From IMG/VR virus record IMGVR_UViG_3300037200_000291, positions 1 to 22,678 of that record: a DNA stretch of 22,678 nucleotides. One strand, 5' to 3'. Source of the stretch: a virus. The notes below the pieces were generated by a model, which worked only from the letters and a program-made list of their open reading frames with translations, did not search any database and was not told the origin of the DNA. Made by a program: the position numbers and the translations under genes. Below, piece by piece: positions 451 through 15,785 of this stretch; within the stretch, counting starts at the first letter, position 1; the number at the start of each line of letters is the position of its first letter.

Positions 451-1011
451 ATGAACTCATCTAATTCAGAAAAGGGCTGTGATGTACCAGGATGCCTAAG
501 GGAAGTGGTCGCAAAGGGTTACTGCAAACCTCACTACCGACGCTTCACAGATTACGGGGATCCTCAGGCAACTCCACTACCTGAAGAAATCGACATTGAC
601 GGGTATCGCATTTGCTCCGCATGCGGAGAGAAGAAGCTTCTCGAAGAAGACTTCTCGCCCGACTCCCGGTGCCGCAAAGGGCGTAAGCGAACCTGTAAAA
701 AGTGCATAGCAAAATATGTCAAAGTCTGGGGCGAGTTCAACAAGGAACGTGTTCGCGAAAATCAACGCGTTGCTCGCATCCGGAGAGTCTTTGGCTCTGA
801 TGGACTAGAAATCGACAAACGACGTCAAGCGGGCGAAGGTTGCGATATCTGTGGTGAGCAAACGATCCGCATGGCTGTTGATCACTGCCACGAGACCGAC
901 CAGGTACGCGGACTACTTTGCAGGTGGTGTAACCTGACGCTTGGCTATGTCCGTGACGATCCAGCAAGACTGAGAGCCATGGCTGATTACCTCGAACGTA
1001 CCCGAGGATAG
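451..1011 (+). CDS. Recombination endonuclease VII-like (His-Me finger) nuclease
   Basis: A 186-residue protein with three Cys/His modules. The first is an N-terminal zinc knuckle (C10, C15, C25, H28), common in phage HNH proteins. The second is a four-Cys module (C55, C58, C82, C85). The third is a C-terminal nuclease domain (about 125-183) with CDIC at 131-134, AVDHCHETD at 142-150, GLLCRWCN at 154-161 and the ending YVRDDPARLRAMADYLE. The DHCH plus CxxCN arrangement is the signature of the endonuclease VII fold (Pfam Endonuclease_7), which cuts branched or specific DNA. It is the only plus-strand gene in the window and lies between the portal fusion and the small minus-strand genes. That position, and the leaderless promoter, fit a free-standing homing-type insertion. 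Family confidence is high; whether it resolves junctions or acts in homing is undetermined. Confidence 0.88.
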   Translation: MNSSNSEKGCDVPGCLREVVAKGYCKPHYRRFTDYGDPQATPLPEEIDIDGYRICSACGEKKLLEEDFSPDSRCRKGRKRTCKKCIAKYVKVWGEFNKERVRENQRVARIRRVFGSDGLEIDKRRQAGEGCDICGEQTIRMAVDHCHETDQVRGLLCRWCNLTLGYVRDDPARLRAMADYLERTRG

Positions 1012-1061: not shown

Positions 1062-4000
1062 TTACTTATTCTGCGAATCAGAACCGGAATGGAATTGGCT
1101 GCTATGGGTCTCCTCGGCAGCCTGGATGTCCCCGGACTGAATGAATCCTACATACGCCAGGACGGGCTTGCCGAGCTTCCTGCGAGCCAGTGCCCGGTGA
1201 TGCCCGTCAACCACGACAGCCTTTTCCCTGCCCGGGACCTGCACCAGGATACTCGGGTTCGTGTGCCCGCGATTAGCCTTGATGTCCCTGGCGAAACGGT
1301 TTACCGCATCAGCCTGATGTGATGCCGCCCATTCCTCGATATCGTGGTCGTCAATCCGCTCCCAGGGAATCTCGACGGGACCGATCCAGCGGGCACGCTT
1401 TACCCAGGCGATCTTATCTTCCGGGAAATTCGACCGGAGCTGGGACAGGATATGCTCAGGATCGGTCTCATTCGGATCACGATAGTCGCCGGGTCCGCCA
1501 GAACCCTTTCCCACGGGGACGACAACATCGGAGTCAGCCGCCGGGTCCCAGTGCTCCACCGCCTCGCCCGGATCGTACACTTCCGGCGGGACCGCGCGGG
1601 GGCTGTAGGGCTTCGGGGTCTTCGGCGGGACCACCCCGACGACAGGATGACCGGAATCGTTCTTGGGGAGCTTGCCGCTCGGGACGCCGGAACCCGAGGG
1701 CTGACCGCTGACTTCCAGCTCCGGCCAGAAGTCCTCGTCCTCCTCGCCCTGGTCCGGGAACCTGCTGGCATGAGGGGCAGCCTGACGGGCATGAGGGTAA
1801 GCCTCGTCGTTATCACCCCGGGGGTAGACCCGGGGATTCGTCGTATCGGCGAAATTGTCATCATGCGGCGGGTCCCCGCCAGGAGATGCCCCTGGATAAG
1901 CCCCAGGACCAGCGTCACGCCAGTGCAGCTCGGGATCCTCCGTGCCGTCCGCGCGATGCGGATACGGCCAGCGGCTTCCTACGGCTTGCAGGCGCTGTCC
2001 TGGGGTGTCCAGCACCATCTGCTCGCCGTTCTCGTTCACCATCCGCTGGAGGGATTTCAGCAGCCGGAGGTTCTCCTCCAGGTGGACTTCCTTCTCCCAG
2101 TCATCCCGGAATTTCTTCGTCAGGTCCAGGCTCCCGATTTCACCCCGGCGGAACCAGGCGGTGCTCAGGGTCTCCTCGGGAGTTGACCCGTTCATCTTCG
2201 GGGTGAAGATCTTACCGGTCTCGCACAGCCACAGATATGCTTTTACCCCATCAGGGTCAGTATGGCTGAAATCGTGCACCACCCGGAACGAGGGGAGGTC
2301 CCCGATTTCCTCGGTGACTTCTCTTACGGCTGCATCCCATCCGTTCTCGCCGACATGGGTCGTACCTCCCGGCATCCCCCAGGAGCCGTCATCACGCTGC
2401 TGGAGGAGATAACGCCAGTGGTCTTTCTCATCCTTGGCGCGGAACAGCAGCCAGGCGACCCGGGACTGGTCTTCCTGATCAGACTTGCCGATGTGCGACT
2501 GCGGAGGGATAGCCTCGATCCCTGCGGGAGCAGGCACACAGCGGCACTGCACGTGGACCAGCCCCAGGGTGCCGCCCTTGGAGAACGGGGCATCCAGCGG
2601 AATGTCCTCATCCTCTGCCGCATCGAGGCAGTCATCGCAGGTATCATCGGGCGCGATCAAGAGATGCTTGTAGGAGACCCCGTGATCCTTGTAGCACTGC
2701 AGAGCCGCGGTGTTCATCGCCCTTGCTACCTCGGTCCGCGCGATCATCTCGCTGCGGCTCCCGGAGTTAGCCAAGCCGGTGCGCATGATCTGCTGCAGCC
2801 AGTGCTCGCCTTCGGTGTTCAGGAAGCCCCGCAGGTGCTCGCTGTCCTCTTTCGAGGTGAAGTCGGCAGGCTGACCCGTGACCAGGGATTTCGCGGAGGC
2901 GTAGCCAAGGTGCCATGCCTCGGTCCACAGGGGTGTCAGGGTGGCTGTGAAGACGCTCTTCGCGGCATCGGAGACAAGTCCCCGCAGGGTGATGTTGTCC
3001 ACCCACATCTTGCCGGTCGCCGCATCCTTGCGAATCTGGGAGCCCTTGGCTTCCGCGGCAGCGAAAGCATCCGCTACCTGCTGCTTGTAAGCCCCGACGA
3101 GACCAAGGTCGTGCTGCCAGCCAGGGAACTGTGTTACAGTTTTACCCCGGTGTGGATCGGAACCTGGATCTGGCTGGGCGTCTTCACTGGCGTCCAGCCA
3201 GTCCTTGGCGATATCGAGGTCACCTGCCCGGTCAATGGCAACATCCAGCAGGACACCCTTGGCGATGTCCTCAGCAATCATGCCCAGGATGCGGTTGGTG
3301 ATGTGCACCGGGTCCCAGGTGGTGATCTGGCGTCCCTTGCGGAGATGCCTTTTCAGCGCGTCCAGCTCCGCGGTCACAGCCTTCTTACGGCTGCCAGCAA
3401 CCGAGCTGCGGCTCGTTGTTCCTCCGGTCCTGGGCGTCGGACTCTGTATCGCTCCGGAGGCGGCGCTGTGTCCGGGAGTGACGCCTTCTCTATGGGGGGA
3501 GACGGGCGCGGGGTGAGACCCATTCGGCTTCGTCTGCCCGCCAGCACGGACCGTGGGCTGCTTGGTTCTTGATCGCGACGACGAAGTGCGCTGCCCGGAG
3601 TTGGTGCCCTGACCGTTGGAGCCGCCCTGCTGCATTGCCGCGATGAGCTGCGGTGCCATGGACAGGGGAATCGGACCCTGCGCGGTGAAGACAACAGGCT
3701 CCGAGGTCTCCTGCAGACCCCACGGGGGAAGATCGAGGCGCTCCCTGATCTCGTCAATGCTCGAAATAGCATTCTGGACCTGCTGGACACCCAGCTCGGT
3801 GATCGCCTGCTTATCCTCGTCATCAACAAGTCCCTCGAACTGGAACTGCATATCGGGCTGATTGCAGATGTCCTGCAGTACGTGGTTGAAGATATCGCAG
3901 ATCCACTGCAGCAGGGGCTTGGTGGACTTGCGGGACTTGATGTCCCGGGAAGACTGGGCGGCGAGGCGAAGAGCAGAGGCATTAGCACCGCCGCCAGCGG

Positions 4001-5273
4001 AAGTGCCGCCCACATTGGGAAGAATGCTCAACTCGGTCGTCTGAACATCAAAAGCCATGCAGACCTGGGTCATGACGAGGTTGTCAAATGAGTCAGAAAG
4101 GTCAACCGGGCGCTGCGGCTCGACACGGCTTCCCGGGGGGAGGACAACTACCTTCAGGTGGTACGCCGGATCCCCTGCAAGGGCATTCAGCGCATTCTGC
4201 AGCTCCCCGATCTGCGTGGGAGTGATGTTCGGGTCGCCCGGTGAGATGTAAACCGCGGGGACGGTACCCTCGGTGTAGTAGTCAAGCTGGAATTCCTGCT
4301 TCTGCAGCCCCGAGATGATGGGCAGCAGTGCCCTTTCCACCGGGGGGAACCCGTACGGGGTCTCCCTGCGGGACACCAATGGCGCGTAGAGCATGATATC
4401 GCTGCGGAAATCGTTGACCTCGGCACCCTGGAGCCCGTAGTCGTCGATATCCTGACCGGTTGCGAGTGTCATGTAGTCGCTGCGGGGTACTCCGTAGAGG
4501 TACTGCTGGTATGCAGGGGCTGGAGGGCGGGGCTTTTCCCCGTGCATCCCCACGAGAGGCCGGATAGTCGGTCCGGAGATCAGGTTGAGGCTGTCCAGGT
4601 CGCTTCCGAGGAGCCCTCTGCCGCCCATGCCGAAGGATGCGCCGTATTTCGGGCGGAAAATCAGCGCCAGCGCGTCATAAACGAGGATTTCCTCTAGCAA
4701 TGCGTCCAGGAAGGAGCTGAAATTCCAGAAATCCGGGTCCGGGTGCTTGAAGAACTTCGTTGCCTCGGCTTTGCGCTCGCCGAAGTCCTTCATTGCCTTG
4801 TGATCGCCCTGGTAAGCCTTCGCCGCGTCCGTGGTGAGGTTGATTTCCCATTCCAGACCCCGGATTTCCTCCTTGCGGAGTTCAATGCAGGCTCTGGCGA
4901 CCGAATAACGGTTACTCAAGGTCCACAACTGCTCAAAAGAGGCTAGTTTGAGCCCTTCCGTCCCGGGCGGGGTCGGGAGGTTCCAGCCGACCCGGTACTG
5001 CCACAGCCTGGGATCGGCGAACTGACCCCCGGGGGGCGGTTCATCGACGGGAACGGGCTGTATCGGGCTGAACGGACCGAAAGCACCATCGGTGAACGTC
5101 CTGCTCGGGCGGGGCAGGAATGGACCGTAGCTGTTCGAGTAAGAATTCTGCAGGTACATTTCTGCGGCGATAGGACTGACCCTGCCCATGCCATTCGAAC
5201 TCGGGGCAGGCGTATAACGCGCTCCGCCGGGAGTCGCCTTCAGGGCGTTTACAATTGCGCCGGGTCTCGCCAC
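1062..5273 (-). CDS. Portal protein fused to MuF-type head protein, NUDIX and ParB-like domains
   Basis: One uninterrupted 1403-residue frame with a GTG start preceded by AAGGGAGA. Residues about 95-540 are a phage portal (early SNRYSVARACIELRKEEIRG, then a long core containing YTEGTVPAVYIS). A Ser/Gly/Pro linker (550-630) leads to a MuF/SPP1 gp7-type domain (about 635-915) with ARTEVARAMN (845-854), DDTCDDCLDA (876-885) and VHVQCRC (906-912). A NUDIX domain follows (about 935-1065). Its box begins at G970 and matches Gx5Ex7REUxEExG through GENGWDAAVREVTEEIG. An acidic, Pro-rich linker (1085-1275) joins a ParB-like domain (about 1280-1385) with VVDGHHRALA (1354-1363). Portals form the dodecameric DNA gate, and MuF proteins enter or line the head. 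The NUDIX and ParB-like parts suggest a cargo or processing role, which is inference. Portals alone are usually 400-600 residues. Confidence 0.92.
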   Translation of the reverse strand: MARPGAIVNALKATPGGARYTPAPSSNGMGRVSPIAAEMYLQNSYSNSYGPFLPRPSRTFTDGAFGPFSPIQPVPVDEPPPGGQFADPRLWQYRVGWNLPTPPGTEGLKLASFEQLWTLSNRYSVARACIELRKEEIRGLEWEINLTTDAAKAYQGDHKAMKDFGERKAEATKFFKHPDPDFWNFSSFLDALLEEILVYDALALIFRPKYGASFGMGGRGLLGSDLDSLNLISGPTIRPLVGMHGEKPRPPAPAYQQYLYGVPRSDYMTLATGQDIDDYGLQGAEVNDFRSDIMLYAPLVSRRETPYGFPPVERALLPIISGLQKQEFQLDYYTEGTVPAVYISPGDPNITPTQIGELQNALNALAGDPAYHLKVVVLPPGSRVEPQRPVDLSDSFDNLVMTQVCMAFDVQTTELSILPNVGGTSAGGGANASALRLAAQSSRDIKSRKSTKPLLQWICDIFNHVLQDICNQPDMQFQFEGLVDDEDKQAITELGVQQVQNAISSIDEIRERLDLPPWGLQETSEPVVFTAQGPIPLSMAPQLIAAMQQGGSNGQGTNSGQRTSSSRSRTKQPTVRAGGQTKPNGSHPAPVSPHREGVTPGHSAASGAIQSPTPRTGGTTSRSSVAGSRKKAVTAELDALKRHLRKGRQITTWDPVHITNRILGMIAEDIAKGVLLDVAIDRAGDLDIAKDWLDASEDAQPDPGSDPHRGKTVTQFPGWQHDLGLVGAYKQQVADAFAAAEAKGSQIRKDAATGKMWVDNITLRGLVSDAAKSVFTATLTPLWTEAWHLGYASAKSLVTGQPADFTSKEDSEHLRGFLNTEGEHWLQQIMRTGLANSGSRSEMIARTEVARAMNTAALQCYKDHGVSYKHLLIAPDDTCDDCLDAAEDEDIPLDAPFSKGGTLGLVHVQCRCVPAPAGIEAIPPQSHIGKSDQEDQSRVAWLLFRAKDEKDHWRYLLQQRDDGSWGMPGGTTHVGENGWDAAVREVTEEIGDLPSFRVVHDFSHTDPDGVKAYLWLCETGKIFTPKMNGSTPEETLSTAWFRRGEIGSLDLTKKFRDDWEKEVHLEENLRLLKSLQRMVNENGEQMVLDTPGQRLQAVGSRWPYPHRADGTEDPELHWRDAGPGAYPGASPGGDPPHDDNFADTTNPRVYPRGDNDEAYPHARQAAPHASRFPDQGEEDEDFWPELEVSGQPSGSGVPSGKLPKNDSGHPVVGVVPPKTPKPYSPRAVPPEVYDPGEAVEHWDPAADSDVVVPVGKGSGGPGDYRDPNETDPEHILSQLRSNFPEDKIAWVKRARWIGPVEIPWERIDDHDIEEWAASHQADAVNRFARDIKANRGHTNPSILVQVPGREKAVVVDGHHRALARRKLGKPVLAYVGFIQSGDIQAAEETHSSQFHSGSDSQNK

Positions 5274-5441: not shown

Positions 5442-8267
5442 CTAAAGACCGAACCACTGCCACGTCGGGGCAGTTCCTGTCCAGGTAATGACCATTGCCT
5501 GACGGACGCCGATAGTAATGGGCACCCCTACGGCAGGAACATTGGCGAGCGCGGTAGTCCCGATCTGGAACTGGGTCATCCCTCCGACTGAACTGAAGAC
5601 AACCTGCAACGGCGTCTGATAGCCAGCGGGGGTATAGGGGGAAGTCCCGGCGGTTCCCCCGTTGGGAACCGTGACCGAGCCGCGGGGGTTGTAGCCGATG
5701 CATTCCGTGACCTGCTGCGGGGTGCCGGTGAATACATTGGAGGGCGAGCCGCCCGTCGCGATGAAGAAGCAGCTCTTGAAGTAGGCGTGCGTGGAGGCAT
5801 TCACCGAGTTCGGGACCTCGCCCGCGGTGGACGTGCCGATCGCGGTTTCCAGGCGGCTAGAGACTGCCCGGAAGTTGCCGCCGGTCATGCCCGAGCAGTT
5901 CACGTCGTACGCGGTGCCGCCACCCTGATTGTTGGCGGCGAAGCTGCATCCGATCACCAGCACTTCCGGCGTATTGTTGACCTGCAGTCCGTCTCCGTAC
6001 GCCTGGTGACTCCGCACGCCGTTCAGGGTGACGTCGGAGCCCGCGTCCACCTGGATGGCTGCATTCCCGCCTTCCACCGACCCGCCGTTGATCGTGATGC
6101 CGCTCGGGGAGCCGTTCGTGCTCGACTCGATGTGCAGTGCCGCGGAACTCCCGGAGGACTGATTGGCGCCTACATCAGGATTAGTGATGGCAACGGTGGC
6201 GCAGGCGCCCTTGATATGCAGCGCGCTCCCGGTCGTACCTGAGGCGATGCCGATGTTGACGCCCTGCACCAGCACATCGGAAATGTCCTCGATCAGCAGC
6301 GCGTCGAGGTTCTCGTTCGCGCCTGAGCTTGCCCCGACCTGCTGGAGCTGAATATCGGTCAGGAAATGCTCGCCGAGGAAGCTTGACCCGGTGACGCCCT
6401 TGACGTGAATTCCGGCGGCGCAGTTCCGGCTGACGATCTGCCCGATCATGAGATCGACATTGGCGGCAGAAGACCCGCCGACTGCCTCTATTCCCCACCC
6501 GTTGACGTACTGGAACCACAGGTTCTTGAACCGGCAGTGCGCGTAGCCGTTCAGCTCGATCCCGTTGCACGCGGGATTCGATGTCACCGTAGAGGACGCC
6601 CCGACTATGCCGAGGTCCTGGACGCTGCACGAGATGGCATTTACGGAGACAGCCTCCGCGGCACCGAAAGAGGAGCCGATGCTGATGAGGGAAGCATTGG
6701 GACCGTCCCCGCGGATCACCGTCCCTGCCGTGGACAGTGCCAGCGCCGTGGAGGTGTTCACCTTGTATATCCCCGCGGGCAGGTAAACTGTCCCCCCGGG
6801 CGAAGAGACCGAGGCAAGGGCATTGTTTATCGCGGTGGTCGAGTCGGTCGTCCCGGTGGGGTCGGCGCCGAACTGGGTCACGGCATTCAGCCAGTCCAGC
6901 TGGATGCTGCCGCCGCCGCTGGCGTACCACAGGGATTCGGCGGAGTCCCAGACGAAGCTGTGCGCGGTGCTCGCGGCGATGATGTCCGCGGTCCCGTCCG
7001 CGACATTCGAGGTCCCGGAAGTGGCGAATGCCACCGGGTAGGACGCCTCGTTGATCACGGTGAGCTGCTGGCTCGCGGCAGTCCCCGCGGGGAGGATCAC
7101 CCCGGTCACCGCGGAAGAAGGAGATACCCGGGCGACACCCAAGCCGGAAGTGGAGATCGTGCCGTTATCAGTAACGGTCTGCGCCGTATCGGACTGCGCC
7201 CCCAGCACGGGAAAGTAGTTGTAGCTGGACGCCTGGTAGAGCTGCCCGTTCCAGTAGGGGTCCGCGGGGAGCGAACTGTACGCGGCATTGGTGGTGATGA
7301 AGAAGTACCCGGTGCGATCCGCCCGGAGCTTGGCGATGATCTGCCCGAGGGTGATCCCGTCGTTGATCTGGTTGATCGTGCGGCAGAACCTGCTCGCCGG
7401 GTAATCTGCCGCCCAGGTCTCCGGGGTGAAGGTGTTAATGAAGGTGTTCGCGTCTTCCTCGAAATCGCAGACGATATCGCACGCGGTCATGTAGGAGACG
7501 TCCGTGGGACTTCCGGGGTTAATCGCGACAAGTCTCTGCCCCGGGTAGGGCTTTGCCTTGACGTAGTTGTAGATCGACTGGTAGTAAGCCTGGTCTGCCC
7601 CGGCGGTATTAGTGGCTTCATCGAAGAAGATCCCGTCCGGGGTGTACCAGTCATACCAGCTGTCCACCTGCGCGGTCACCGTGGAGGTCGGGACCGTCGT
7701 GTAATTCGTGGAGACATACCCCAGGACCTTGATCCCTGCCGCCTGAGCCAGCGGGATCTGGGTGGTGAAGTCGCCGTTGACTGCATTCCCGGGACCGTTG
7801 CTGACATTCGCGATGATGATACTGGTCGCGGGAGCCGAGGACTGGACCTGCTGCCATGCCCCGCCGCCCTCATCGAAGTAACTGGGGTAGATGTACATCG
7901 GGATCATCAGCTGCATCACCGAATCCCCGGGAGGGTAATTCAGCTGTGCTGCCGCGGGACCCAGCCACCCTGCGGTCGCCACCTGGTAGATGGTGAAATC
8001 CGGGAGATGCCCGACCGGGGTGGTGTTCTCCGCGCCTCTTGTTACCGTCCAGGTATTGCCGGAAGTATTCGTGACCGCGATGATCTCAGAGGGGCTTGCC
8101 TGGTCCGCGACGTGGAACTGGCTCGGGGGGGTACTTGAACTCACCACCGGGAAAGAGGCTGAGGATGATACTGTCCAGGTCTCGATCGTCCCCTGTGCCG
8201 GAAGGTCAGTTCCCCCGGAGAGGACGACAGTGAAAGAGTCGTTGGCGAAGGTCTCGGTGGCAGTCAT
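5442..8267 (-). CDS. Tail fibre/tailspike with spherulin-4-like and pectate-lyase-fold domains
   Basis: A 941-residue protein whose ATG follows a GGGGGGATGA-type ribosome site. The N-terminal about 100 residues form a beta-sandwich attachment module (AVTNTSGNTWTVTRGAENTT) like those on other actinophage fibres. Residues about 118-345 resemble the spherulation-specific family 4 domain (LMIPMYIYPSYF, IIIANVSNGPGN, GIKVLGYVSTNY, and the acidic DGIFFDEA at 211-218), a TIM-barrel group related to glycoside hydrolases. Residues about 455-850 are a right-handed beta-helix beginning VTQFGADPTGTTDSTTAIN and GGTVYLPAGIYKV, typical of pectate-lyase superfamily tailspikes. The C-terminus (865-941) is a small beta module ending TAPTWQWFGL. 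It probably binds and cuts a host surface glycan; the substrate cannot be told from sequence. The gene follows the 121-residue gene with a 10-base gap. Confidence 0.85.
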   Translation of the reverse strand: MTATETFANDSFTVVLSGGTDLPAQGTIETWTVSSSASFPVVSSSTPPSQFHVADQASPSEIIAVTNTSGNTWTVTRGAENTTPVGHLPDFTIYQVATAGWLGPAAAQLNYPPGDSVMQLMIPMYIYPSYFDEGGGAWQQVQSSAPATSIIIANVSNGPGNAVNGDFTTQIPLAQAAGIKVLGYVSTNYTTVPTSTVTAQVDSWYDWYTPDGIFFDEATNTAGADQAYYQSIYNYVKAKPYPGQRLVAINPGSPTDVSYMTACDIVCDFEEDANTFINTFTPETWAADYPASRFCRTINQINDGITLGQIIAKLRADRTGYFFITTNAAYSSLPADPYWNGQLYQASSYNYFPVLGAQSDTAQTVTDNGTISTSGLGVARVSPSSAVTGVILPAGTAASQQLTVINEASYPVAFATSGTSNVADGTADIIAASTAHSFVWDSAESLWYASGGGSIQLDWLNAVTQFGADPTGTTDSTTAINNALASVSSPGGTVYLPAGIYKVNTSTALALSTAGTVIRGDGPNASLISIGSSFGAAEAVSVNAISCSVQDLGIVGASSTVTSNPACNGIELNGYAHCRFKNLWFQYVNGWGIEAVGGSSAANVDLMIGQIVSRNCAAGIHVKGVTGSSFLGEHFLTDIQLQQVGASSGANENLDALLIEDISDVLVQGVNIGIASGTTGSALHIKGACATVAITNPDVGANQSSGSSAALHIESSTNGSPSGITINGGSVEGGNAAIQVDAGSDVTLNGVRSHQAYGDGLQVNNTPEVLVIGCSFAANNQGGGTAYDVNCSGMTGGNFRAVSSRLETAIGTSTAGEVPNSVNASTHAYFKSCFFIATGGSPSNVFTGTPQQVTECIGYNPRGSVTVPNGGTAGTSPYTPAGYQTPLQVVFSSVGGMTQFQIGTTALANVPAVGVPITIGVRQAMVITWTGTAPTWQWFGL

Positions 8268-8277
8268 TCATCCCCCC

Positions 8278-8643
8278 TCACTGGACCTGGACCTGTCCGC
8301 CGACAAGGACGGGAATTTCCGGCGAATCGGTCACCTTGATGTAGATGATGTACGTGCCGACGCCGAGAGTTATCGTCCCAGAGGGACCGACCAGGCACTG
8401 GGCGGAGTACGGGTACAGCACATTCGTGCTCTCCGTGACCCAGGAGCCGCTCACCCAGTCCGCGTTCTGCGGGACCTGCGTGGGTGTAGGCATGAAAGCA
8501 AATTGAACTGCATCCCCGGTCGGATTGTAGGCAACCCCCGCCTTGGTAACTGAGACGGGAATGAAGATGTACTCCGTCGCGAGCTGACTCAGCCCTATGG
8601 AGGCGTAATTGCCCACATTCCACTCCATCCAGGGTCCGCTCAT
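8278..8643 (-). CDS. Small beta-rich virion-associated protein
   Basis: A 121-residue protein. The ATG (8643-8641) shares its A with the TGA of the preceding gene (TGATG), a classic coupled start; a GTG 42 bases upstream would add 14 residues inside that gene and is less likely. It is strand-rich, with YIFIPVSVTKAGVAYNPTGD, VQFAFMPTP, SGTITLGVGTYIIYIKVTD and an ending SPEIPVLVGGQVQVQ. This looks like an immunoglobulin-like or fibre-associated fold, and similar small proteins often sit between fibre genes in actinophages. No catalytic motif, signal peptide or membrane segment is seen. A structural or chaperone role in the fibre complex is inferred from its position between the PhoD-like protein and the tailspike. 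The specific function is not recognised. Confidence 0.75.
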   Translation of the reverse strand: MSGPWMEWNVGNYASIGLSQLATEYIFIPVSVTKAGVAYNPTGDAVQFAFMPTPTQVPQNADWVSGSWVTESTNVLYPYSAQCLVGPSGTITLGVGTYIIYIKVTDSPEIPVLVGGQVQVQ

Positions 8644-10835
8644 CACGGGACTGCCCACTGTGTTTTCACGTTTCCCGCTTTCCACTGGGAATACGGAATC
8701 CCCGTATCGAAAACCAGCGAGCGGAGGACCAGCGGTACTACCGGACCCCCGGGACCGCTCCGCACCGAGCCCTTACGGAACAGGTCGGATGACCGGGCGG
8801 CATTCCCGACGGATCCCTGCAGGGGGTAGACGGGAGGTCCGCTGGCGCTGAACATATCGGTCTGGGTTACCTGCGCGAGCTGGTTGACGGCATCCCAGCC
8901 CTGGAAGTTCACGCTGATCGCGGACCCGCTGTCGGTGACGGTAACCCGCCCGTACTGCCTGCATTCCCCGTTGGAGTTATTGTAATAGCTGGTAAATGTC
9001 TGGGGATTATAGGTAGCTGCCCCGGTCTGCCGCATCGGGGCGGCGCAGTACACCGGGAACCTTCCGCCGCCATTTGCCGCTGAATTACCTGCAGTAGACA
9101 CGGCTACGCCGTGAAAGTCCCCGTGGATCAGCAGGACGTTCCGCATCGTTGACCAGGACTCGACCATGTAGTTTACGATCGCAGCGCGCTCGGTCTGGTA
9201 AGACCACCATTTGCCCAGCTCGTCATCTTGTCCGATAGTGGGGACAATAGTGCCGAGCCACTGCGTGTCAGTGACAATGATCTTCAGCAGTTCCGGCTCG
9301 ATAAGCTGCGCCTGAAGCCATGCTAGCTGAGTGGCGCCGAGCATCGTCTTGGAGGAGTTGTCCGTGTTCGCGCCGGGAGAACGGTCGATATTGCGGATGT
9401 CCAGCATGATGAACCGGACCCGCCCTTGCACCCATGACTGGCACAGCGAGTGAACCGGGTTGTTTGCCGCGTCACCGAGGGTGCCCTGCGGGAAAATCTC
9501 CTGCGCCGCGACAAGATTCGCCGCGGTCCACAGGTTATCGGAGTCGTCGTTGACGCCGCCTGCGGTAGTGGTGCTGTCGTGGTTGGACCGGCAGTAGTAC
9601 CCCCACGCCTGGCGGGTGATCGGCTCCATTCCGTAATACCAGGTCTGAGCTTCGTATGTCCCGATCTGGCTGGGCTGGTCAGTGAACGTGGGGTTCTGGT
9701 AGCCGTAGTCCCCCGTGAAGACGTTCAGGTCCGCGCCCCACGCGATCCAGTCGTTCAGTGCAGTATCGGGACCGGGGGTCTCATCAGCGGTATTCACGCA
9801 GCTTGCGATGGCGAACGTGAACGACTGCGCCGAGCCGGGAGTGGCGAGGGTCTTAACGGTCCCCACGCTGCCAACGAGAGCCTCAGTGCCCCCGGGCGGA
9901 GTGTCGGCGAGCTGGCAGTAGTACCGGGTGAACGGGTTCAGCCCGGTCACGGCATGACTGACGTAGCCATACTGGTCCGGGGTCTGAGCGGAGACGTAGG
10001 TGACGTTCTGGGTGAGCCCGGAGTTAGTGGCGACTTTCAGCCGCAGGCTCGTCCCCCCGACCGGCTTGGAGATCACGTGGAACCCGCTCGGGGTGGGTCC
10101 GCCGCAGATCATCTGCTGGACGATCGCGCCGGGTCCGATGTACCCGGAAACTGATGCCGCGATGTCGTCCATGTAGTAGGTCATGCCGGTAACGCCCGTC
10201 GATGACGGACCGAACCGGACCTGAGTGATAGCGCCGCCGAGCGTGTTCAGGTTCGCCCCGGAGGTCTGCGTCTCGGTCGGGGTGGTGCTGTCCGGGGAGT
10301 CGAACAGCTTCACTTCCATCTGCCCGGTGCTGGCATTGGAGGTGACGTAGCCCTCGACGCGGTACCAGGCGCTGAGCGGGACGGTATTCGTGGTGGTGAT
10401 GATCACGGTCCCGGCGGCGTTGCGCATGCTCAGCGTGCCGCTGGCGTTGATGATCAGGTCACCGGCGCGTGACCCGCCGACGTTCAGCAGGCACAGCTGG
10501 TGCACCGACGCCGGATTGGCGGCCTGGTACAGGTAGATCCGGAACCAGGTCTGCGCCGCCGGATTGCCGAGCAGTCCGGAACTATTCCACATCAGGTAGC
10601 ATGCTGCCGTGGACGGCGTATACACCTGGCAGGATAGGCTGCCGGAATGCGCGACCGTGTTGCTGTAGGTGAGAGTGCTCGCGCCGCTAACCGACACGCT
10701 GTCGAACAGCATCCCGTCCGCGGTGCCGAGGCTGGCGTACGTCGGACCGCCGCTGCCCGGTCCCGCGGGGATGGCGATGCCGCTGGTGCCGCCCTCGAAA
10801 CAGCAGGCTAGGACCGGCTGGGTGTCGATAGCCAT
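8643..10835 (-). CDS. LamG-like + PhoD-like metallophosphodiesterase virion protein
   Basis: A 730-residue protein. Residues 1-235 form a LamG/concanavalin-like sandwich (QTWFRIYLYQ, AWYRVEGYV, TPTETQTSGANLNT, YYMDDIAAS, GYIGPG) clearly paralogous to the 374-residue protein upstream in the operon. Residues about 245-335 look fibronectin-III-like (TGLNPFTRYYCQLADT). Residues about 337-650 resemble the PhoD-like phosphatase/phosphodiesterase family (Pfam PhoD), with FAIASC (341-346), GDYGYQ (375-380), RSNHD (416-420), ATQLAWLQAQL (501-511) and HGDFHG (571-576), the metal-binding landmarks of that family. The C-terminal 80 residues are Pro/Gly-rich. PhoD enzymes cleave phosphodiesters and in Bacillus act on teichoic acid, so a virion enzyme against phosphodiester-linked wall polymers is a reasonable inference. 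There is no signal peptide, as expected for a virion part. The start lies 7 bases after the preceding stop and is probably translationally coupled. Confidence 0.85.
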   Translation of the reverse strand: MAIDTQPVLACCFEGGTSGIAIPAGPGSGGPTYASLGTADGMLFDSVSVSGASTLTYSNTVAHSGSLSCQVYTPSTAACYLMWNSSGLLGNPAAQTWFRIYLYQAANPASVHQLCLLNVGGSRAGDLIINASGTLSMRNAAGTVIITTTNTVPLSAWYRVEGYVTSNASTGQMEVKLFDSPDSTTPTETQTSGANLNTLGGAITQVRFGPSSTGVTGMTYYMDDIAASVSGYIGPGAIVQQMICGGPTPSGFHVISKPVGGTSLRLKVATNSGLTQNVTYVSAQTPDQYGYVSHAVTGLNPFTRYYCQLADTPPGGTEALVGSVGTVKTLATPGSAQSFTFAIASCVNTADETPGPDTALNDWIAWGADLNVFTGDYGYQNPTFTDQPSQIGTYEAQTWYYGMEPITRQAWGYYCRSNHDSTTTAGGVNDDSDNLWTAANLVAAQEIFPQGTLGDAANNPVHSLCQSWVQGRVRFIMLDIRNIDRSPGANTDNSSKTMLGATQLAWLQAQLIEPELLKIIVTDTQWLGTIVPTIGQDDELGKWWSYQTERAAIVNYMVESWSTMRNVLLIHGDFHGVAVSTAGNSAANGGGRFPVYCAAPMRQTGAATYNPQTFTSYYNNSNGECRQYGRVTVTDSGSAISVNFQGWDAVNQLAQVTQTDMFSASGPPVYPLQGSVGNAARSSDLFRKGSVRSGPGGPVVPLVLRSLVFDTGIPYSQWKAGNVKTQWAVP

Positions 10836-10842
10836 CTGTTAG

Positions 10843-11127
10843 CTACGCCGGGCTGCTGACGATCCAGCTCAGCGTCGTGGCGGTAGCCCCGGCGACGGCA
10901 TTGACCGTGCCCCCGGGGGATTTCACGTAGGTGGCATAGGTGATCGCGCGTCCCGGGTCGAGGATGTACCCGTTGGAAGTGGAAGCAGCACCGCTCCCCA
11001 CTGCCACGTACGCAGTACTCGCACTCACGGTCCCGCTGTTGATAGTGACCACCGCGGGACCCGGGGGCATGTAGAAGAGAACAGTGCTGACAGTCCCGAT
11101 GGTCGCCTGTCCGGTAACAAGGGGCAT
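10843..11127 (-). CDS. Small beta-rich structural protein
   Basis: A 94-residue protein with an ATG 5 bases after an AAGGAC ribosome site. It is almost entirely Ala/Gly/Ser/Thr/Val beta-strand sequence: TVSTVLFYMPPGPAVVTINS, TAYVAVGSGAASTSNGYIL, ATTLSWIVSSPA. It has no Cys, no membrane helix and no catalytic motif. The pattern (a strand pair, then ASTSNGYILDPGRAI, then a closing strand) resembles the small head-fibre or tip proteins of actinophages, which carry repeated beta units. Its position between two LamG-containing proteins points to a virion surface component. I cannot assign it further. Confidence 0.7.
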   Translation of the reverse strand: MPLVTGQATIGTVSTVLFYMPPGPAVVTINSGTVSASTAYVAVGSGAASTSNGYILDPGRAITYATYVKSPGGTVNAVAGATATTLSWIVSSPA

Positions 11128-11135
11128 ACGTGTCC

Positions 11136-12260
11136 TTACATCGAGACGAAGGTTGTGAGAATGCTCGGGAGCGCGCTGGTGTCACTCGGCGGAGCAGCAG
11201 GCGGCGGGGGCGTTGGCGGAATCGGCGGCACGTACCGCGGGGTGCTCCGCTGACTCGGTATCCGGGAGCCGCCGATGATACGACCGGGGATGACGGCACG
11301 GACGGGCTTTGTCTGCGGGTAGATGATCGCGGTGTTGGAAGGTCCGAGATAGCCGGTGCTGGAGAGCCCGACATCATCCATCCAGAACGGACCGACGTTT
11401 GCGACAGCGGTAATTGGACCGAAGTTATATGCAGTCGGGTTTACTGAGGAGGTGTTCAGGTTCGCCGCCGAGGTGTGGGTCTCGGTGGGGACAATTGAGT
11501 CCATCGAGCCGTACAGCGTTGCCGATACCTGGCCGACGGTAGCCGAGGCGACGATGAAGCCCTCGACCCGGAACCACCGGTTCAGGGGAATCGAGTTCGA
11601 GAACGTGACGAAGGTCGTGCCGGTGCTGCTGTAGCTGACTAGCAGCTTGCCGCTGGTAGTCACGAACAGGCTGCTGACAGCAGTGCTGCCGCCGCTTGTG
11701 CAGCTCCATATCTTGTGCTGATTGGTCGGGTTTACGGTGAAATACGCATACAGCCGGAACCACATCTGGCTTACGCTCGGAGCCAGTCCGCTGGTGTTCC
11801 ACTGGTTATACGAAGCGGCCGACGCTCCCGTGGCAATTTCATTAGCCAGGAGACCGTGCGCGACGTACGTGTTATCGAAAACATCGGTGGCGCCAGTGCC
11901 GGGACCTATAGCATCAAAGGCATTGCCCGAGCTGCCCCCGGTGTTGATGACGAGGAGCTGGAGATCGACCACGCCCCCGGTCGCGACCGTCCCGGTGGCG
12001 GAGCCGCTAAGGTAGGCGCACCCGGTGAACGTGTTCCCGGAAACACCCGTGTACGTGATTAGCGCAGTGGTTGACCCGGACGCCGCGACGAAAAGCGTCT
12101 GCGTTCCCGAGGTCGGGTAACCCGCGGTACTGGCGACGGCGAGAACCCCGGCACTCGGGAAAGACCAGGATGCGATGGTGCTGATCTCGCCGCCGTTGCT
12201 CCCGGACGCGACGGTGGTGGGAGCGGCGCCGCCCTCAAAGGAGTTGGTCAGGATCGTCAT
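11136..12260 (-). CDS. LamG-like virion surface protein
   Basis: A 374-residue protein whose ATG overlaps the preceding stop by four bases (ATGA). After about 30 residues comes a phage attachment-type beta module (about 32-98: LAVASTAGYPTSGTQTLFV, ALITYTGVSGNTFTGC, GTVATGGVV). A LamG/concanavalin-like domain follows (about 105-310) with QMWFRLYAYF, RWFRVEGFI, PTETHTSAANLNT, FWMDDVGLS and GYLGPS. The tail (315-374) is basic then Pro-rich (PPIPPTPPPPAAPP), suggesting a flexible linker. The LamG region aligns by eye, motif for motif, with residues 90-235 of the 730-residue PhoD-like protein, so one derives from duplication of the other. LamG folds generally bind carbohydrate, so a receptor-binding or decoration role is inferred. 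Confidence 0.8.
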   Translation of the reverse strand: MTILTNSFEGGAAPTTVASGSNGGEISTIASWSFPSAGVLAVASTAGYPTSGTQTLFVAASGSTTALITYTGVSGNTFTGCAYLSGSATGTVATGGVVDLQLLVINTGGSSGNAFDAIGPGTGATDVFDNTYVAHGLLANEIATGASAASYNQWNTSGLAPSVSQMWFRLYAYFTVNPTNQHKIWSCTSGGSTAVSSLFVTTSGKLLVSYSSTGTTFVTFSNSIPLNRWFRVEGFIVASATVGQVSATLYGSMDSIVPTETHTSAANLNTSSVNPTAYNFGPITAVANVGPFWMDDVGLSSTGYLGPSNTAIIYPQTKPVRAVIPGRIIGGSRIPSQRSTPRYVPPIPPTPPPPAAPPSDTSALPSILTTFVSM

Positions 12261-13753
12261 GGCATGCCACCCGGGGGATTCCTGTAGCCGGAGCGTCTCC
12301 GGGACTTGTGGATGTGCTCCCGGAGCTTCAGGAACACCCTGCGGTGCAGCGGCACCTCATCCCCCAGCCCGGGGGGACCGCCCAGCCATCTCCCGTCATC
12401 CGGGGGAATGGTCAGCCCCAGCCGGGTATTCGCGACCCAGATGGCATAGCTGTTCCCGGGAACGGCATAGAGAGTTCCCCGGGAAACCAGGTCAAGGTAA
12501 TCCAGGTAGTACACCGGGACATGCCCTATGTAGGTCCAGTACTCATACACCACGGGACTGAGGTCCGCGTCATACGGGATTCCCGGGCGGATCGTCCCGG
12601 GCTGCATCAGCCCGGGAGTCCCGGAGACGAATTCCGAGGTGACGACCGGGGTGGGAGGAGGAGGGACCGGTCCCGGGGGAGTCATGTACGGGGGGGGCGT
12701 GAAGCTGACTGACCCCCCGGAAGGACGACGCCAGGGACGCTTTGCCTGAGCAGGACGGGTCGCCTGCCGGAAAGCCGGACCCTTGGTAGGATTCCGGGGT
12801 GCGGAGCCCTTATTGCTTCCGAGGTGCCCTCTCGGGGGCAGGCTCGGGCGGATTCTCGCAGGAGAGGTCTTCTGCTGAAAAGCCGGACCCTTGGTGGGGT
12901 TCTTTACCGGGCTGCTCTGGCTGATCTCGGTGCGACCCCGGAGGAGAGGCTGCTGCGGGAGCTTTGCCCGGACCGCCTGCACCATCGGACGGAAAGCCGG
13001 ACCCGAGGTGATGGTATGCGGGACCGAGGACGCGGACTTGTAGGTGCGACCCGCCCGGAACGCCGCCGGGGTCCTTGCCTTAACCGCCTGGAGCGGGACC
13101 TGCACCGCGGGGGACGCCGGGACCTGCGCGACCCAGACGCTTGCCCGGTCGTAGGTGGTATTAGCGAGCTGGGTCCAGGTAAGGTCCAGGGTGTCACTGA
13201 CGGTTACGGTCAGCGTTCCCGAGCCGGTGCCGTTGTTCGAGACCACCGCGACGAGAAGACTTCCCCCGGGAGGAGAGAAGCTCGCGGTGCTGATCGTGGT
13301 CGCGGTGGTGGTGTTCTTGCCTGCCGGGGAACTCGGGTCCTCCGCGAGGGTCGTCGCTGCGAGGATCTCCGCGGCAGCCCAGATCAGGTTGCCCGTGGTC
13401 TCCGCGGGGGCTGATGCGCCTACCGTGACCGGGGTGGCTGCTGTTGTCGTTCCTGTACTGCGGAAGGTGCCGAAGGTGTCCCCGTCACCCGCGTACAGCA
13501 CGTTCTGGCTGAACGTGGTGCTGCCGTTCGCGGTGAAAGCGGTTGCTGCCGCGACGTTGGTGACAGCCCCGTAGACCCAGCTTCCGGTGGCTGTCGGGGT
13601 GATAGCCAGCTGGGGGGTGGTGATGCTGGTGCTCGCGTCCTGCGTCCCGTTCTGGGCTGCGGCAGCCAGTGCCCCGGTGAGGACCTTGACGGTGAGGATG
13701 ATCCCGTCATCGGTGCCGGTTCCGCCCTGGGAGGCGGTGACGGTCAGGGACAT
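12257..13753 (-). CDS. Virion protein with beta domains and basic Pro-rich repeats
   Basis: A 498-residue protein. Residues 1-210 are Thr/Ala/Gly-rich beta sequence in two halves (SWVYGAVTNVAAATAF, GNLIWAAAEI, then GSLLVAVVSNNGTGSGTLTV, LTWTQLANTTYDRASVWVA). Residues about 221-348 hold three and a half copies of a roughly 36-residue basic unit with GPAFRP, GPAFQQ, GPAFRQ and AVKAR, AVRAK, PAQAK. The unit edges are near 221, 257, 295 and 331. A Pro stretch (352-370) leads to a C-terminal domain with YEYWTYIGHVPVYYLDYLDL and a basic end (HIHKSRRRSGYRN). The gene overlaps the next by ATGA. Similar basic repeats occur on structural proteins of actinophages; a role as a flexible spacer or DNA/wall contact is speculation. 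Its ribosome site is weak (GAGG about 13 bases upstream). Confidence 0.75.
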   Translation of the reverse strand: MSLTVTASQGGTGTDDGIILTVKVLTGALAAAAQNGTQDASTSITTPQLAITPTATGSWVYGAVTNVAAATAFTANGSTTFSQNVLYAGDGDTFGTFRSTGTTTAATPVTVGASAPAETTGNLIWAAAEILAATTLAEDPSSPAGKNTTTATTISTASFSPPGGSLLVAVVSNNGTGSGTLTVTVSDTLDLTWTQLANTTYDRASVWVAQVPASPAVQVPLQAVKARTPAAFRAGRTYKSASSVPHTITSGPAFRPMVQAVRAKLPQQPLLRGRTEISQSSPVKNPTKGPAFQQKTSPARIRPSLPPRGHLGSNKGSAPRNPTKGPAFRQATRPAQAKRPWRRPSGGSVSFTPPPYMTPPGPVPPPPTPVVTSEFVSGTPGLMQPGTIRPGIPYDADLSPVVYEYWTYIGHVPVYYLDYLDLVSRGTLYAVPGNSYAIWVANTRLGLTIPPDDGRWLGGPPGLGDEVPLHRRVFLKLREHIHKSRRRSGYRNPPGGMP

Positions 13754-13800
13754 GACGACATCACCGCCTCGCCAGGGTTATCGGGACCCCCCTTGAGGGA

Positions 13801-14328
13801 TTACTCAGAGATGACGAGTTCAGCCAGCAGGTTCACCGCGGAGGTGGACCCGGCTGCGCCCAGCTCGTAGGTGAGCGCCAGGGTGCCCTGCCCGGGACCG
13901 ACGTTGACCTCGAAGCCGGGGGTGAACCACTCGCCCCAGTTCGCCCCGGCGGTGCAGGGGACGGTCTGGGACCAGACGACCCCGGCAGGGGTCGGGAAGG
14001 TGCCCGTGCCTGATCCGTTCGCCGTGGAGAAGTACCACGTGGAGACAGCCGCGGTCGTGGACTGGCTCACCGGGGCTGCGGTCGCGGTACCCACGACAAT
14101 CGGGGTCACGGTGCCCGAGGCCCGGCGTAGCCTGAAAGTGATCGTGCCATTGCTGGGATAAGACGCCGAGGAACCGCTGTAAGTGCCGACACGAATAGCA
14201 CTCACATTGAATTCTGACGCCGTCTGACCATAGAGCAGCACATATTCTGTGCCAAGCACGCCGCCAGTCCCGATGCTAATACCGGTGGCGACGTTGCAAT
14301 CGACATTGTAACTTCTTGCCACTGCCAT
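13801..14328 (-). CDS. Beta-rich head/tail decoration-like protein
   Basis: A 175-residue protein. I choose the ATG at 14328 because AGAGAGG lies about 8 bases upstream; a start 15 codons further up would fall in the hairpin that precedes this site. The protein is a mixed beta sandwich: MAVARSYNVDCNVATGISIG, EYVLLYGQTASEFNVSAIRV, GTITFRLRRASG, STWYFSTANG, WGEWFTPGFEVNVGPGQGTL, LTYELGAAGST. There is no signal peptide or membrane segment. It heads the surface-protein block and has the best ribosome site there, which fits a product needed in many copies. A decoration or fibre-base role is inferred from context; I recognise no named family. Confidence 0.72.
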   Translation of the reverse strand: MAVARSYNVDCNVATGISIGTGGVLGTEYVLLYGQTASEFNVSAIRVGTYSGSSASYPSNGTITFRLRRASGTVTPIVVGTATAAPVSQSTTAAVSTWYFSTANGSGTGTFPTPAGVVWSQTVPCTAGANWGEWFTPGFEVNVGPGQGTLALTYELGAAGSTSAVNLLAELVISE

Positions 14329-14345
14329 GATAATTACCTCTCTTA

Positions 14346-14374
14346 AATGCCGGAATTGGCGAATTCCCGGCATT
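14346..14374. terminator. Hairpin in front of the virion-surface block
   Basis: AATGCCGG (14346-14353) + AATT pairs with AATT + CCGGCATT (14367-14374), with one bulged base and a four-base loop, giving a 12-pair stem. On the minus strand it is followed at once by TAAGAGAGG, the ribosome site of the next gene, not by a U-run. It may be an imperfect terminator for the glycosyltransferase operon or an mRNA processing or stability element. Confidence 0.5.
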
Positions 14375-14387
14375 CACCGGGTATTGG

Positions 14388-15080
14388 TTAAACTGACTGC
14401 AGTGCGCGAATCTTCGCGATGTCATCAGCCATCCGGGTGCGGCGCCAGCTGAAATAGGCTTCGCGATCTGCCGGAATCTTCTTATTTGAGTCTGAATACG
14501 TCTTATCGGATGATGCTTTCCCGGTCGCCGGGTGGATGTGATCCACCGAGATAGCCCGGAGGTGCCTGATGCAGCCAGCACCCCAGCCGAGGTCAGCCCA
14601 TACGTTATCGACGTAGAAATGCTGCAACTCGGGGAGGCAGAACCAGCCGAGAGCCTTGACGATGTTGCTGCTGAGGCAGACCGCTTCCGGGATGTCCTCG
14701 CGGGTCCCGTCCCAGGGATAGCTCAGTCCCACGCCGCCCATCCGGATGATCCCGCTGATCAGGGACCTGTCCCAGACGGGGGTCATCGGGCAGTGATCGT
14801 CACCGAAAGATGCCAGGAAAGGATACTCATCAGCCCGGCGCACCGCGATCTCGTTGGTCCATTCCGCGAGACCCCGGCGCTTCCCTATCTCCAGGACGTC
14901 CCCGTCTGCCCCGGCTTTCCCGAAGACATACTCGTACTGGGCAAGCTCAGGGTCGTCATCATCAATCGCGACGTGAAGATGGGTTTTCAGCCCGCTTGTC
15001 TCGTGGATCGAATCCAGGAGACGGGCTATATTCCTCGGTCGCTCACGGCTCGGCGTGATGACCAGCAGGTCGCCCTTCAC
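14388..15080 (-). CDS. GT-A fold (family 2-like) glycosyltransferase
   Basis: A 230-residue protein with a GTG start that overlaps the methyltransferase stop (GTGA). The N-terminus LLVITPSRERPRNIARLLDS followed by HLHVAIDDDDPE (36-46) is the nucleotide-binding start of GT-A enzymes. FASFGDDHCP-like sequence (90-98, reading LASFGDDHCP) supplies the acidic metal/sugar-nucleotide motif. VDNVWADLGWGAGCIRHL (157-174) and VDHIHPATGK (179-188) are typical of phage glycosyltransferases of this size. Donor and acceptor are unknown. It closes a four-gene cassette with a family 4 glycosyltransferase and a methyltransferase, so building and capping a short glycan, perhaps on a virion protein, is the likeliest role. 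It is short but appears complete. Confidence 0.82.
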   Translation of the reverse strand: MKGDLLVITPSRERPRNIARLLDSIHETSGLKTHLHVAIDDDDPELAQYEYVFGKAGADGDVLEIGKRRGLAEWTNEIAVRRADEYPFLASFGDDHCPMTPVWDRSLISGIIRMGGVGLSYPWDGTREDIPEAVCLSSNIVKALGWFCLPELQHFYVDNVWADLGWGAGCIRHLRAISVDHIHPATGKASSDKTYSDSNKKIPADREAYFSWRRTRMADDIAKIRALQSV

Positions 15081-15655
15081 CAGGGTGCCTTAGTCACGTG
15101 CAGCGTCCCGGTGAGCCAGTCAGGACCCTCCGGGAAAACCTCGTCCAGGGCTTGATTGACGCCATCGATTCCCGCGACCGGGATATTGGGACCGGGATGC
15201 CCGTAGTCATGGCAGGCGATGAACCCGTCTTCGGCGACCAGTTGTTTCGCCCATTCGGCATCATGCTTAGCGCCCTGGTAGGAGTGATCGGCGTCGATGA
15301 AGACCAAGCCGAACTTCCTGCCCTGCGCAGCGAGCGCGGGAAGCGCGTCCTGGCTCGACTGCCGGACTATGGTCACGATACCGGAGACCCCGGCAGTCTC
15401 GACATTCACCAGCATTATGTCATGGGAGTTTGTCATGTTGTTGCTGTTGCAGGGCTGGTGAAAATCCACTGCCGTAACGCTTCGCGCACCGTGCCGTGCC
15501 ATCATGATCGCGGAGTAGCCGAATGCGGAGCCGACTTCAAGGCAGTCACGCCCCTCGGCAAGCCTGCCGAGGCAGTCAATCTCCTCAGCGGTAACCGAGG
15601 TGGAGATAAGAGGACCGTCCGGGGTGATTTTCACCCATTCCCACGGGTTAGACAT
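15077..15655 (-). CDS. Class I SAM-dependent methyltransferase
   Basis: A 192-residue protein from the ATG at 15655, which overlaps the preceding 45-residue gene by 8 bases; an ATG at 15691 would add 12 residues. Motif I is CLEVGSAFGYSA (38-49), followed by VTAVDFHQ (60-67). The post-motif acidic strand is LVFIDADHSYQGAKHDAEWA (117-136), and FIACHDYGHP (145-154) completes a pattern typical of the Methyltransf_24 and cephalosporin-hydroxylase-like families, which often modify sugars or small molecules. It lies between two glycosyltransferase genes in one overlapping operon, so O-methylation of the glycan they build is the natural inference. Nothing points to a DNA methylase: there is no DPPY-type motif or target-recognition domain. 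Confidence 0.85.
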   Translation of the reverse strand: MSNPWEWVKITPDGPLISTSVTAEEIDCLGRLAEGRDCLEVGSAFGYSAIMMARHGARSVTAVDFHQPCNSNNMTNSHDIMLVNVETAGVSGIVTIVRQSSQDALPALAAQGRKFGLVFIDADHSYQGAKHDAEWAKQLVAEDGFIACHDYGHPGPNIPVAGIDGVNQALDEVFPEGPDWLTGTLHVTKAPW

Positions 15656-15785
15656 TATCCTCTTGATCCTCTTCCTGATTCCATGGCTCATTCAGCCAGG
15701 CTTTGAGGTACGCTTCCCGGTGCCTGGGGTTGTCCCAGTCCAGCTCATCTTCATCCAGCAGTTTCTGGAGCCGGTGGTCGATCAT
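15648..15785 (-). CDS. Acidic 45-residue protein in glycosylation operon
   Basis: The ATG (15785-15783) overlaps the stop of the family 4 glycosyltransferase gene (ATGA), and the stop overlaps the methyltransferase start by 8 bases. The protein begins MIDHRLQKLLDEDELDWDN, continues PRHREAYLKAWLNEPWNQ and ends in an acidic tail. It is helical, rich in Trp and Glu/Asp, with no Cys and no membrane segment. Position alone suggests a partner of the flanking enzymes. Longer readings upstream run inside the glycosyltransferase gene in another frame and are not believable. Confidence 0.6.
   Translation of the reverse strand: MIDHRLQKLLDEDELDWDNPRHREAYLKAWLNEPWNQEEDQEDNV

What the first reader, a model, noticed from the sequence alone, without database searches (positions are those of the whole stretch)
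1062..5273. Portal, MuF, NUDIX and ParB-like domains fused in one 1403-residue protein
The frame is continuous and all four domains show diagnostic residues. Portal-MuF fusions and MuF proteins with enzymatic tails (MuF polymorphic toxins) are known. A perfect NUDIX box (G970 to G991) plus a DGHHR ParB-like domain behind a portal in every portal subunit is unusual. About 12 copies per virion would place a nucleotide hydrolase and a possible nucleotide-dependent or nuclease module at the DNA gate, suggesting delivery of an anti-host or anti-defence enzyme, or proteolytic release inside the head.
Basis: partly seen in the sequence, partly recalled or inferred. Interest (0 to 1): 0.78.

Follow-up and report, generated by a model that had tools for sequence, protein, structure and literature searches.

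The report
Phage portal carrying nucleotide-processing enzyme domains
The gate protein through which this phage's DNA enters and leaves its head carries a NUDIX hydrolase and a ParB-like nucleotide-binding domain; uncultivated phages shuffle and re-use these modules on their gate proteins, which suggests a tool kit carried inside the virion.

Summary
In detail: one minus-strand ORF (5273-1062, GTG, 1403 aa) encodes portal, MuF, NUDIX and a ParB/Srx-fold domain with DGHHR. The NUDIX box is exactly G970-G991.

NUDIX on a portal is not new. It occurs in Burkholderia phage Bcep1 and Arthrobacter phages Sonali and Mufasa8, and a 2022 survey reported such fusions as probable injected effectors.

The ParB/Srx domain is the less familiar part. 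I found no match in 50,697 phage records, yet 60 distinct sequences in uncultivated viruses. Of 57 with readable context, 42 are fused to a portal and 5 lie in another gene of a portal-bearing locus. They sit on at least four portal families (PF04860, PF06381, PF06074, phrog_145).

The modules occur in four orders, sometimes with a 2H phosphoesterase, or as separate genes beside a 2H-ADP-ribosyltransferase gene. NUDIX was probably acquired at least twice. Catalytic motifs are kept.

Best reading: the portal's C-terminal tail is a carrier for nucleotide-processing enzymes held in the head and acting early in infection (a polyvalent-protein arrangement). Interior position, release and substrate are inferred. 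A ParB/Srx function in DNA packaging or ejection is not excluded.

Verdict: confirmed; new variant of a known kind.

The parts
1062..5273 (-). Portal-MuF-NUDIX-ParB/Srx fusion protein, 1403 aa, GTG start
   Evidence: ORF; same architecture in L002, L003, L015, L019, L020, L021, L027, L117, L120
5279..5285 (-). Ribosome-binding site AAGGGAG
   Evidence: direct reading
3714..5012 (-). Portal domain, residues 88-520
   Evidence: phrog_2662 1.4e-51, Pfam PF04860 1e-7 below cutoff; dN 0.11-0.17 against relatives
3354..3713 (-). Low-complexity linker, residues 521-640
   Evidence: no domain hit
2523..3356 (-). MuF domain with helical arm, residues 640-917; Cys motif C879xxC882 and CRC 910-912
   Evidence: PF04233 2.8e-5, TIGR01641 SPP1 gp7 0.0018, C and H columns invariant in A5
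2088..2468 (-). NUDIX domain, residues 936-1062
   Evidence: PF00293 2.2e-10; Foldseek RenU 3.7e-7 and other NUDIX hydrolases
2301..2366 (-). NUDIX box G970-G991 (GTTHVGENGWDAAVREVTEEIG)
   Evidence: regex; E, R, E, E, E columns invariant in 19 sequences
1488..2051 (-). Fast-evolving linker, residues 1075-1262
   Evidence: 49-60% identity, dN 0.35-0.48 against relatives
1065..1484 (-). ParB/sulfiredoxin-fold domain, residues 1264-1403
   Evidence: profile match to SerK/SbnI 3.7e-6; AF2 pLDDT 86.6, Foldseek PadC/Srx/ParB; 60 relatives
1194..1208 (-). DGHHR motif, residues 1356-1360
   Evidence: invariant in all 43 aligned domains

Best explanation
The protein is a portal whose C-terminal side has been extended into a carrier for enzymes. 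After the portal and the MuF minor-head domain come exchangeable nucleotide-processing modules: a NUDIX hydrolase (cleaves NDP-X bonds) and a ParB/Srx-fold domain with DGHHR (probable nucleotide or metal site), in relatives also a 2H phosphoesterase. The most likely mechanism is that portal assembly places these modules inside the procapsid. They stay as internal tails or are cut free by the head protease, and they act at the start of infection against host nucleotide signals or nucleic acids, i.e. a portal-anchored polyvalent protein. Shown: fusion, intact motifs, purifying selection, shuffling of order, separate-gene variants next to an ADP-ribosyltransferase gene. Inferred: interior location, cleavage or ejection, substrate.
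For: Domains and fold. Catalytic columns invariant; NUDIX and ParB evolve more slowly than the linker between them in 3 of 4 comparisons each. Four orders: portal-MuF-NUDIX-ParB, portal-MuF-ParB-NUDIX, portal-NUDIX-MuF, portal-ParB-NUDIX-MuF. Split genes in L011, L023, L024, L025, L026. 2H phosphoesterase in L027 and L026; a gene with 2H and ADP-ribosyltransferase domains just downstream of the separate portal and ParB ORFs in L024; ParB joined to an Arr-like domain in L114. NUDIX on other head proteins: Bcep1 gp18 portal, Gilgamesh gp52 next to the major capsid gene, Pam4 capsid protease. NUDIX of the two main orders are different clades. PMC9503650 and PMC5512222 propose packaging and injection for such fusions.
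Against: Portals are not known to leave the virion, so delivery needs an unproven cleavage. No immunity gene or known target was sought. The ParB/Srx domain follows portals of unrelated families more faithfully than expected of random cargo, which could mean a portal function. Only a weak prohead-protease hit was seen in one relative (L003, E 0.0068), and the window ends before that region.
Confidence: 0.55

Rival explanations
1. The ParB/Srx domain is a working part of the portal machine: a nucleotide-controlled element on the inner crown that grips or senses DNA during packaging, end retention or ejection. NUDIX is a secondary passenger.
For: Of 57 informative sequences 42 are fused to a portal and 5 more share a locus with a separate portal ORF. 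Host portals belong to PF04860, PF06381, PF06074 and phrog_145, and the ParB tree needs at least 7 portal-family changes. The domain occurs with no NUDIX in many portals. MuF gp7 of SPP1 binds DNA and the portal (reference list).
Against: The domain also exists as a separate small ORF (L025, L033, L034, L110) and in a large Arr-containing protein (L114). No HTH or parS-type DNA-binding domain was identified. The position along the chain is not fixed, being before or after MuF and NUDIX.
Confidence: 0.22
2. The modules act in the infected cell while portals are being made, for example cleaning damaged nucleotides or removing alarmones, and are attached to the portal only for co-expression or stability.
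For: NUDIX relatives include MutT-like and Ap6A hydrolases.
Against: A low-copy structural protein is a poor carrier for a bulk enzyme. Separate genes would serve equally well, and the modules repeatedly return to head proteins.
Confidence: 0.1
3. A polymorphic toxin: the C-terminal ParB domain is a DNase delivered by the head that damages the host or competitors (Tox-ParB with DGHHR in PMC3482391).
For: DGHHR is the hallmark motif of Tox-ParB. MuF toxins are a known class.
Against: No immunity gene was looked for. In Tox-ParB systems the toxin is the variable tip, while here the domain is conserved and may lie in the middle of the chain. That survey's table does not list phage-head (MuF) delivery for Tox-ParB. 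No match in bacterial genomes beyond three weak partial hits, whereas MuF toxins are typical of temperate phages.
Confidence: 0.08
4. Non-catalytic decoys or structural fillers.
For: None direct.
Against: All NUDIX catalytic acids and DGHHR kept in distant relatives.
Confidence: 0.05

Closest known systems
Phage portal/MuF/protease-NUDIX fusions (Iyer et al. 2022, PMC9503650; Bcep1 gp18, Arthrobacter phage Sonali and Mufasa8 gp3, PHROG 15528)
   Same: NUDIX domain covalently attached to a portal or other head protein.
   Different: Different NUDIX clade, different order, and an added ParB/Srx domain that the cultured examples examined here were not found to carry.
Polyvalent proteins (Iyer et al. 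2017, PMC5512222)
   Same: Several conflict-type domains in one virion-linked polypeptide; ParB, 2H, ART partners.
   Different: The carrier is the portal itself; ParB type is DGHHR rather than DdrB-ParB (no ddrB-ParB Pfam hit).
Tox-ParB of polymorphic toxins (PMC3482391)
   Same: ParB fold with DGHHR.
   Different: Portal-linked; no toxin-delivery repeats seen; often internal, not the terminal tip.
SerK/SbnI free serine kinases
   Same: Closest solved sequences by profile (3.7e-6); SerK shares DGHHR.
   Different: In the ungapped alignment the SerK catalytic Glu30 (mutated in 5x0e) faces the invariant Ala54 of the portal domain; score far below the NCBIfam cutoff.
SPP1 gp7/MuF proteins
   Same: MuF Cys/His signature, next to or on the portal.
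   Different: [quoted passage not shown] here MuF is part of each portal subunit.

Membership tests
Caudoviricetes portal protein | portal-fold domain by profile | tested here: met
   phrog_2662 1.4e-51; PF04860 1e-7 but below gathering score in the window, above it in relatives L004, L003, L027
Caudoviricetes portal protein | dodecameric ring at the capsid vertex | not testable with these tools
   needs cryo-EM
NUDIX hydrolase | Gx5Ex7REUxEExGU box | tested here: met
   residues 970-991, last U is Asp992; catalytic acids invariant in 19 relatives
NUDIX hydrolase | alpha/beta/alpha NUDIX fold | tested here: met
   Foldseek RenU, DR1025, Ap6A hydrolase, E about 1e-6
NUDIX hydrolase | hydrolysis of an NDP-X substrate | not testable with these tools
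   assay needed
ParB/sulfiredoxin superfamily | ParB/Srx fold | tested here: met
   AF2 pLDDT 86.6; PadC 8.6e-4, Srx, ParB-CDP
ParB CTPase clamp | GERR-type CTP motif plus HTH and dimer domains | tested here: not met
   DGHHR in place of GERR (GERR from general knowledge); no HTH or other Pfam domain detected in the 140-aa region
Sulfiredoxin | catalytic Cys in GCHR | tested here: not met
   His in that position, invariant GHHR (GCHR from general knowledge)
SerK/SbnI serine kinase | catalytic Glu30 | tested here: not met
   faces Ala54 in the ungapped profile alignment; nearby position 57 is variable; a shifted alignment is not excluded
DdrB-like ParB | ddrB-ParB profile match | tested here: not met
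   no such hit in Pfam scans
Tox-ParB | ParB fold with conserved DGHHR | tested here: met
Tox-ParB | toxin tip with neighbouring immunity gene | not tested
   no immunity search made
MuF protein | MuF core with C..C / CxC signature | tested here: met
   PF04233 2.8e-5 (below gathering), invariant C240, C243, H268, C271, C273 in A5
Polyvalent protein | several effector-type domains in one virion-associated polypeptide | tested here: inconclusive
   domain composition fits; presence in virion not shown

The most novel reading that the evidence does not exclude
A nucleotide-binding ParB/Srx domain on portals of several unrelated families is a previously unrecognised working part of the DNA gate (nucleotide-controlled DNA grip or ejection switch), with NUDIX resetting or sensing the nucleotide.
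Probability: 0.2. Interest if true: 0.85.

Novelty: new variant of a known kind. Interest (0 to 1): 0.6.

Why it matters
It links two questions: which enzymes phages carry in their heads, and what the inner tail of the portal does. Showing that a ParB/Srx domain not found in the cultured-phage records searched has moved among at least four portal families gives a concrete target. If the modules are injected they are candidate early counter-defence enzymes. If they stay, they are a new part of the packaging gate.

Tried and rejected
Assembly artefact or frame-joining: rejected, same fusion in independent contigs. Bacterial prophage source: genome-contig scan gave only three weak partial hits in archaeal and clostridial MAGs. 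ParB domain in cultured phages: three tblastn queries, no match. The 43-row ParB alignment was too diverse to scan genomes, so a 12-row subset was used. PADLOC gave only weak hits. NUDIX substrate from structure: hits spread over many NUDIX classes, no assignment made. One NUDIX origin for the two main orders: disfavoured, AU p 0.025, group tested after the tree was seen, so only moderate. dS was near saturation, so dN and pN/pS were compared between segments rather than absolute ratios. First attempts at two Pfam batches exceeded the residue limit. Papers that join portal and ParB-like in one text with fusion and C-terminal: none found.
Full report
OBSERVATION. The window is an IMG/VR virus record of 22,678 bases. 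The ORF named in the finding lies on the minus strand, 5273 to 1062, GTG start, 1403 codons, with AAGGGAG five bases upstream. Pfam gives NUDIX above its cutoff (2.2e-10); portal (1e-7) and MuF (2.8e-5) are below theirs but confirmed by phrog_2662 (1.4e-51 over residues 88-912), by TIGR01641 (0.0018) and by relatives. The ParB-like call was weak on a single sequence (phrog_1033, 0.005).

FOLD OF THE LAST DOMAIN. A 43-sequence alignment keeps W27, W52, A54, P77 and D93-R97 in every row, and H127 and Q130 in nearly all. As a profile it finds the ParB-fold serine kinases SerK (3.7e-6) and SbnI (3.4e-5) in the PDB. The AlphaFold2 model (pLDDT 86.6, pTM 0.80) matches PadC (8.6e-4), sulfiredoxin, ParB bound to CDP, SerK and SbnI. 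It is therefore a ParB/sulfiredoxin-fold domain. It is not a serine kinase by the aligned catalytic glutamate, not a sulfiredoxin (His for Cys), not a CTPase ParB (DGHHR for GERR, no HTH found) and not DdrB-ParB. DGHHR is the motif described for Tox-ParB domains of polymorphic toxins (PMC3482391), whose table lists type II, V, VI, VII and PVC delivery but not phage heads.

NUDIX. Nineteen relatives keep all catalytic acids. The MuF-NUDIX model (pLDDT 76.6) matches many NUDIX hydrolases, best RenU (3.7e-7); no substrate can be assigned. Against four relatives, NUDIX dN is below that of linker 2 in L010, L002 and L019 and equal in L003; ParB dN is below it in L010, L002 and L019 and slightly above in L003. 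Synonymous sites are near saturation, so absolute dN/dS is unreliable.

SURVEY. Scans of IMG/VR with the full protein and the ParB domain gave 60 distinct ParB-domain sequences. Of these, 42 are in one ORF with a portal, 5 have a portal in another ORF of the locus, 3 start inside the ORF at a contig end, and 10 show no portal. Some sequences are close copies, the portal profiles were partly seeded from the same set, and L032 rests on a weak portal hit (5e-4), so these counts are descriptive. Carrier portals belong to PF04860, PF06381 (L040, L043, L059), PF06074 (L044, L046, L048, L072) and phrog_145 (L042, L106, L107). On the ParB tree the portal-family labels need at least seven changes (PF04860 counted as two groups); a PF06381 carrier groups with a PF06074 carrier at 99/85. 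The domain thus moved between portal families and stayed with portals.

ORDER. Four orders occur: portal-MuF-NUDIX-ParB (window and relatives), portal-MuF-ParB-NUDIX (L004, L045; in L028, L029, L030 MuF was not detected), portal-NUDIX-MuF (Sonali, Mufasa8), portal-ParB-NUDIX-MuF (L113). Split forms: L023 (portal | MuF-ParB-NUDIX), L011 and L025 (ParB as next ORF), L024 (portal | ParB | 2H-ADP-ribosyltransferase protein), L026 (portal-2H-ParB | MuF). L027 inserts a 2H phosphoesterase between MuF and NUDIX. L114 joins ParB with an Arr-like domain. NUDIX of the window's order forms a clade (98/93) apart from that of the other orders, which group with NUDIX domains on Gilgamesh gp52 and the Pam4 protease; one clade for both is disfavoured (AU p 0.025), so at least two captures are likely.

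WHAT IS KNOWN. PMC9503650 states that T4-like NudE NUDIX domains are fused to MuF, portal and the capsid-processing serine peptidase and may be packaged and injected. PMC5512222 describes portal or MuF fusions to 2H, InPase and PBECR domains. Bcep1 gp18 was annotated as NUDIX-like portal. Portal-NUDIX is therefore known; the portal-ParB/Srx family, the four-domain order and its spread across portal families were not found in the papers I could search.

MECHANISM. Shown: fusion, motif conservation, module exchange, effector-type partners. From general knowledge: portal C-termini face the capsid interior and portals are about twelve-fold. Inferred: modules sit in the head, are perhaps freed by the prohead protease (one weak S78 hit), and act on host nucleotide signals or nucleic acids early in infection. 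A portal-mechanical function for ParB/Srx is the main rival.

VERDICT. Observation confirmed, interpretation partly supported, new variant of a known kind, interest 0.6.

Noticed in passing
window 5442-16930, minus strand: Between the terminase (18403-19953) and the portal lie large structural-looking genes (spherulin-4/pectate-lyase fold, PhoD-like phosphatase, proline-rich proteins), a glycosyltransferase, a GT-like gene and a methyltransferase: an unusual gene order shared in part with L002.
   Followed up: partly
window 18403-19953: The terminase large subunit has a C-terminal extension with zinc-ribbon-like CxxC pairs (PF12773).
   Followed up: no
window 451-1011, plus strand: Recombination endonuclease VII gene (PF02945 1.1e-16) on the strand opposite to the portal gene.
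   Followed up: no
L011 634-5661: About 376-residue insertion in the portal with a Hint domain (PF13403 9.6e-7), probably an intein; L117 has a similar-sized portal insertion and L047 a LAGLIDADG insertion.
   Followed up: partly
L023 3361-7275: Intein-splicing domain (PF14890 5e-4) between MuF and ParB.
   Followed up: no
L024 7818-11753: 1312-aa protein with a 2H phosphoesterase and an ADP-ribosyltransferase domain just downstream of the portal and ParB genes.
   Followed up: partly
L069 (Streptomyces phage Gilgamesh), record 31978-45852: 13.9-kb gene of unknown function near the head genes, possibly a polyvalent protein.
   Followed up: no
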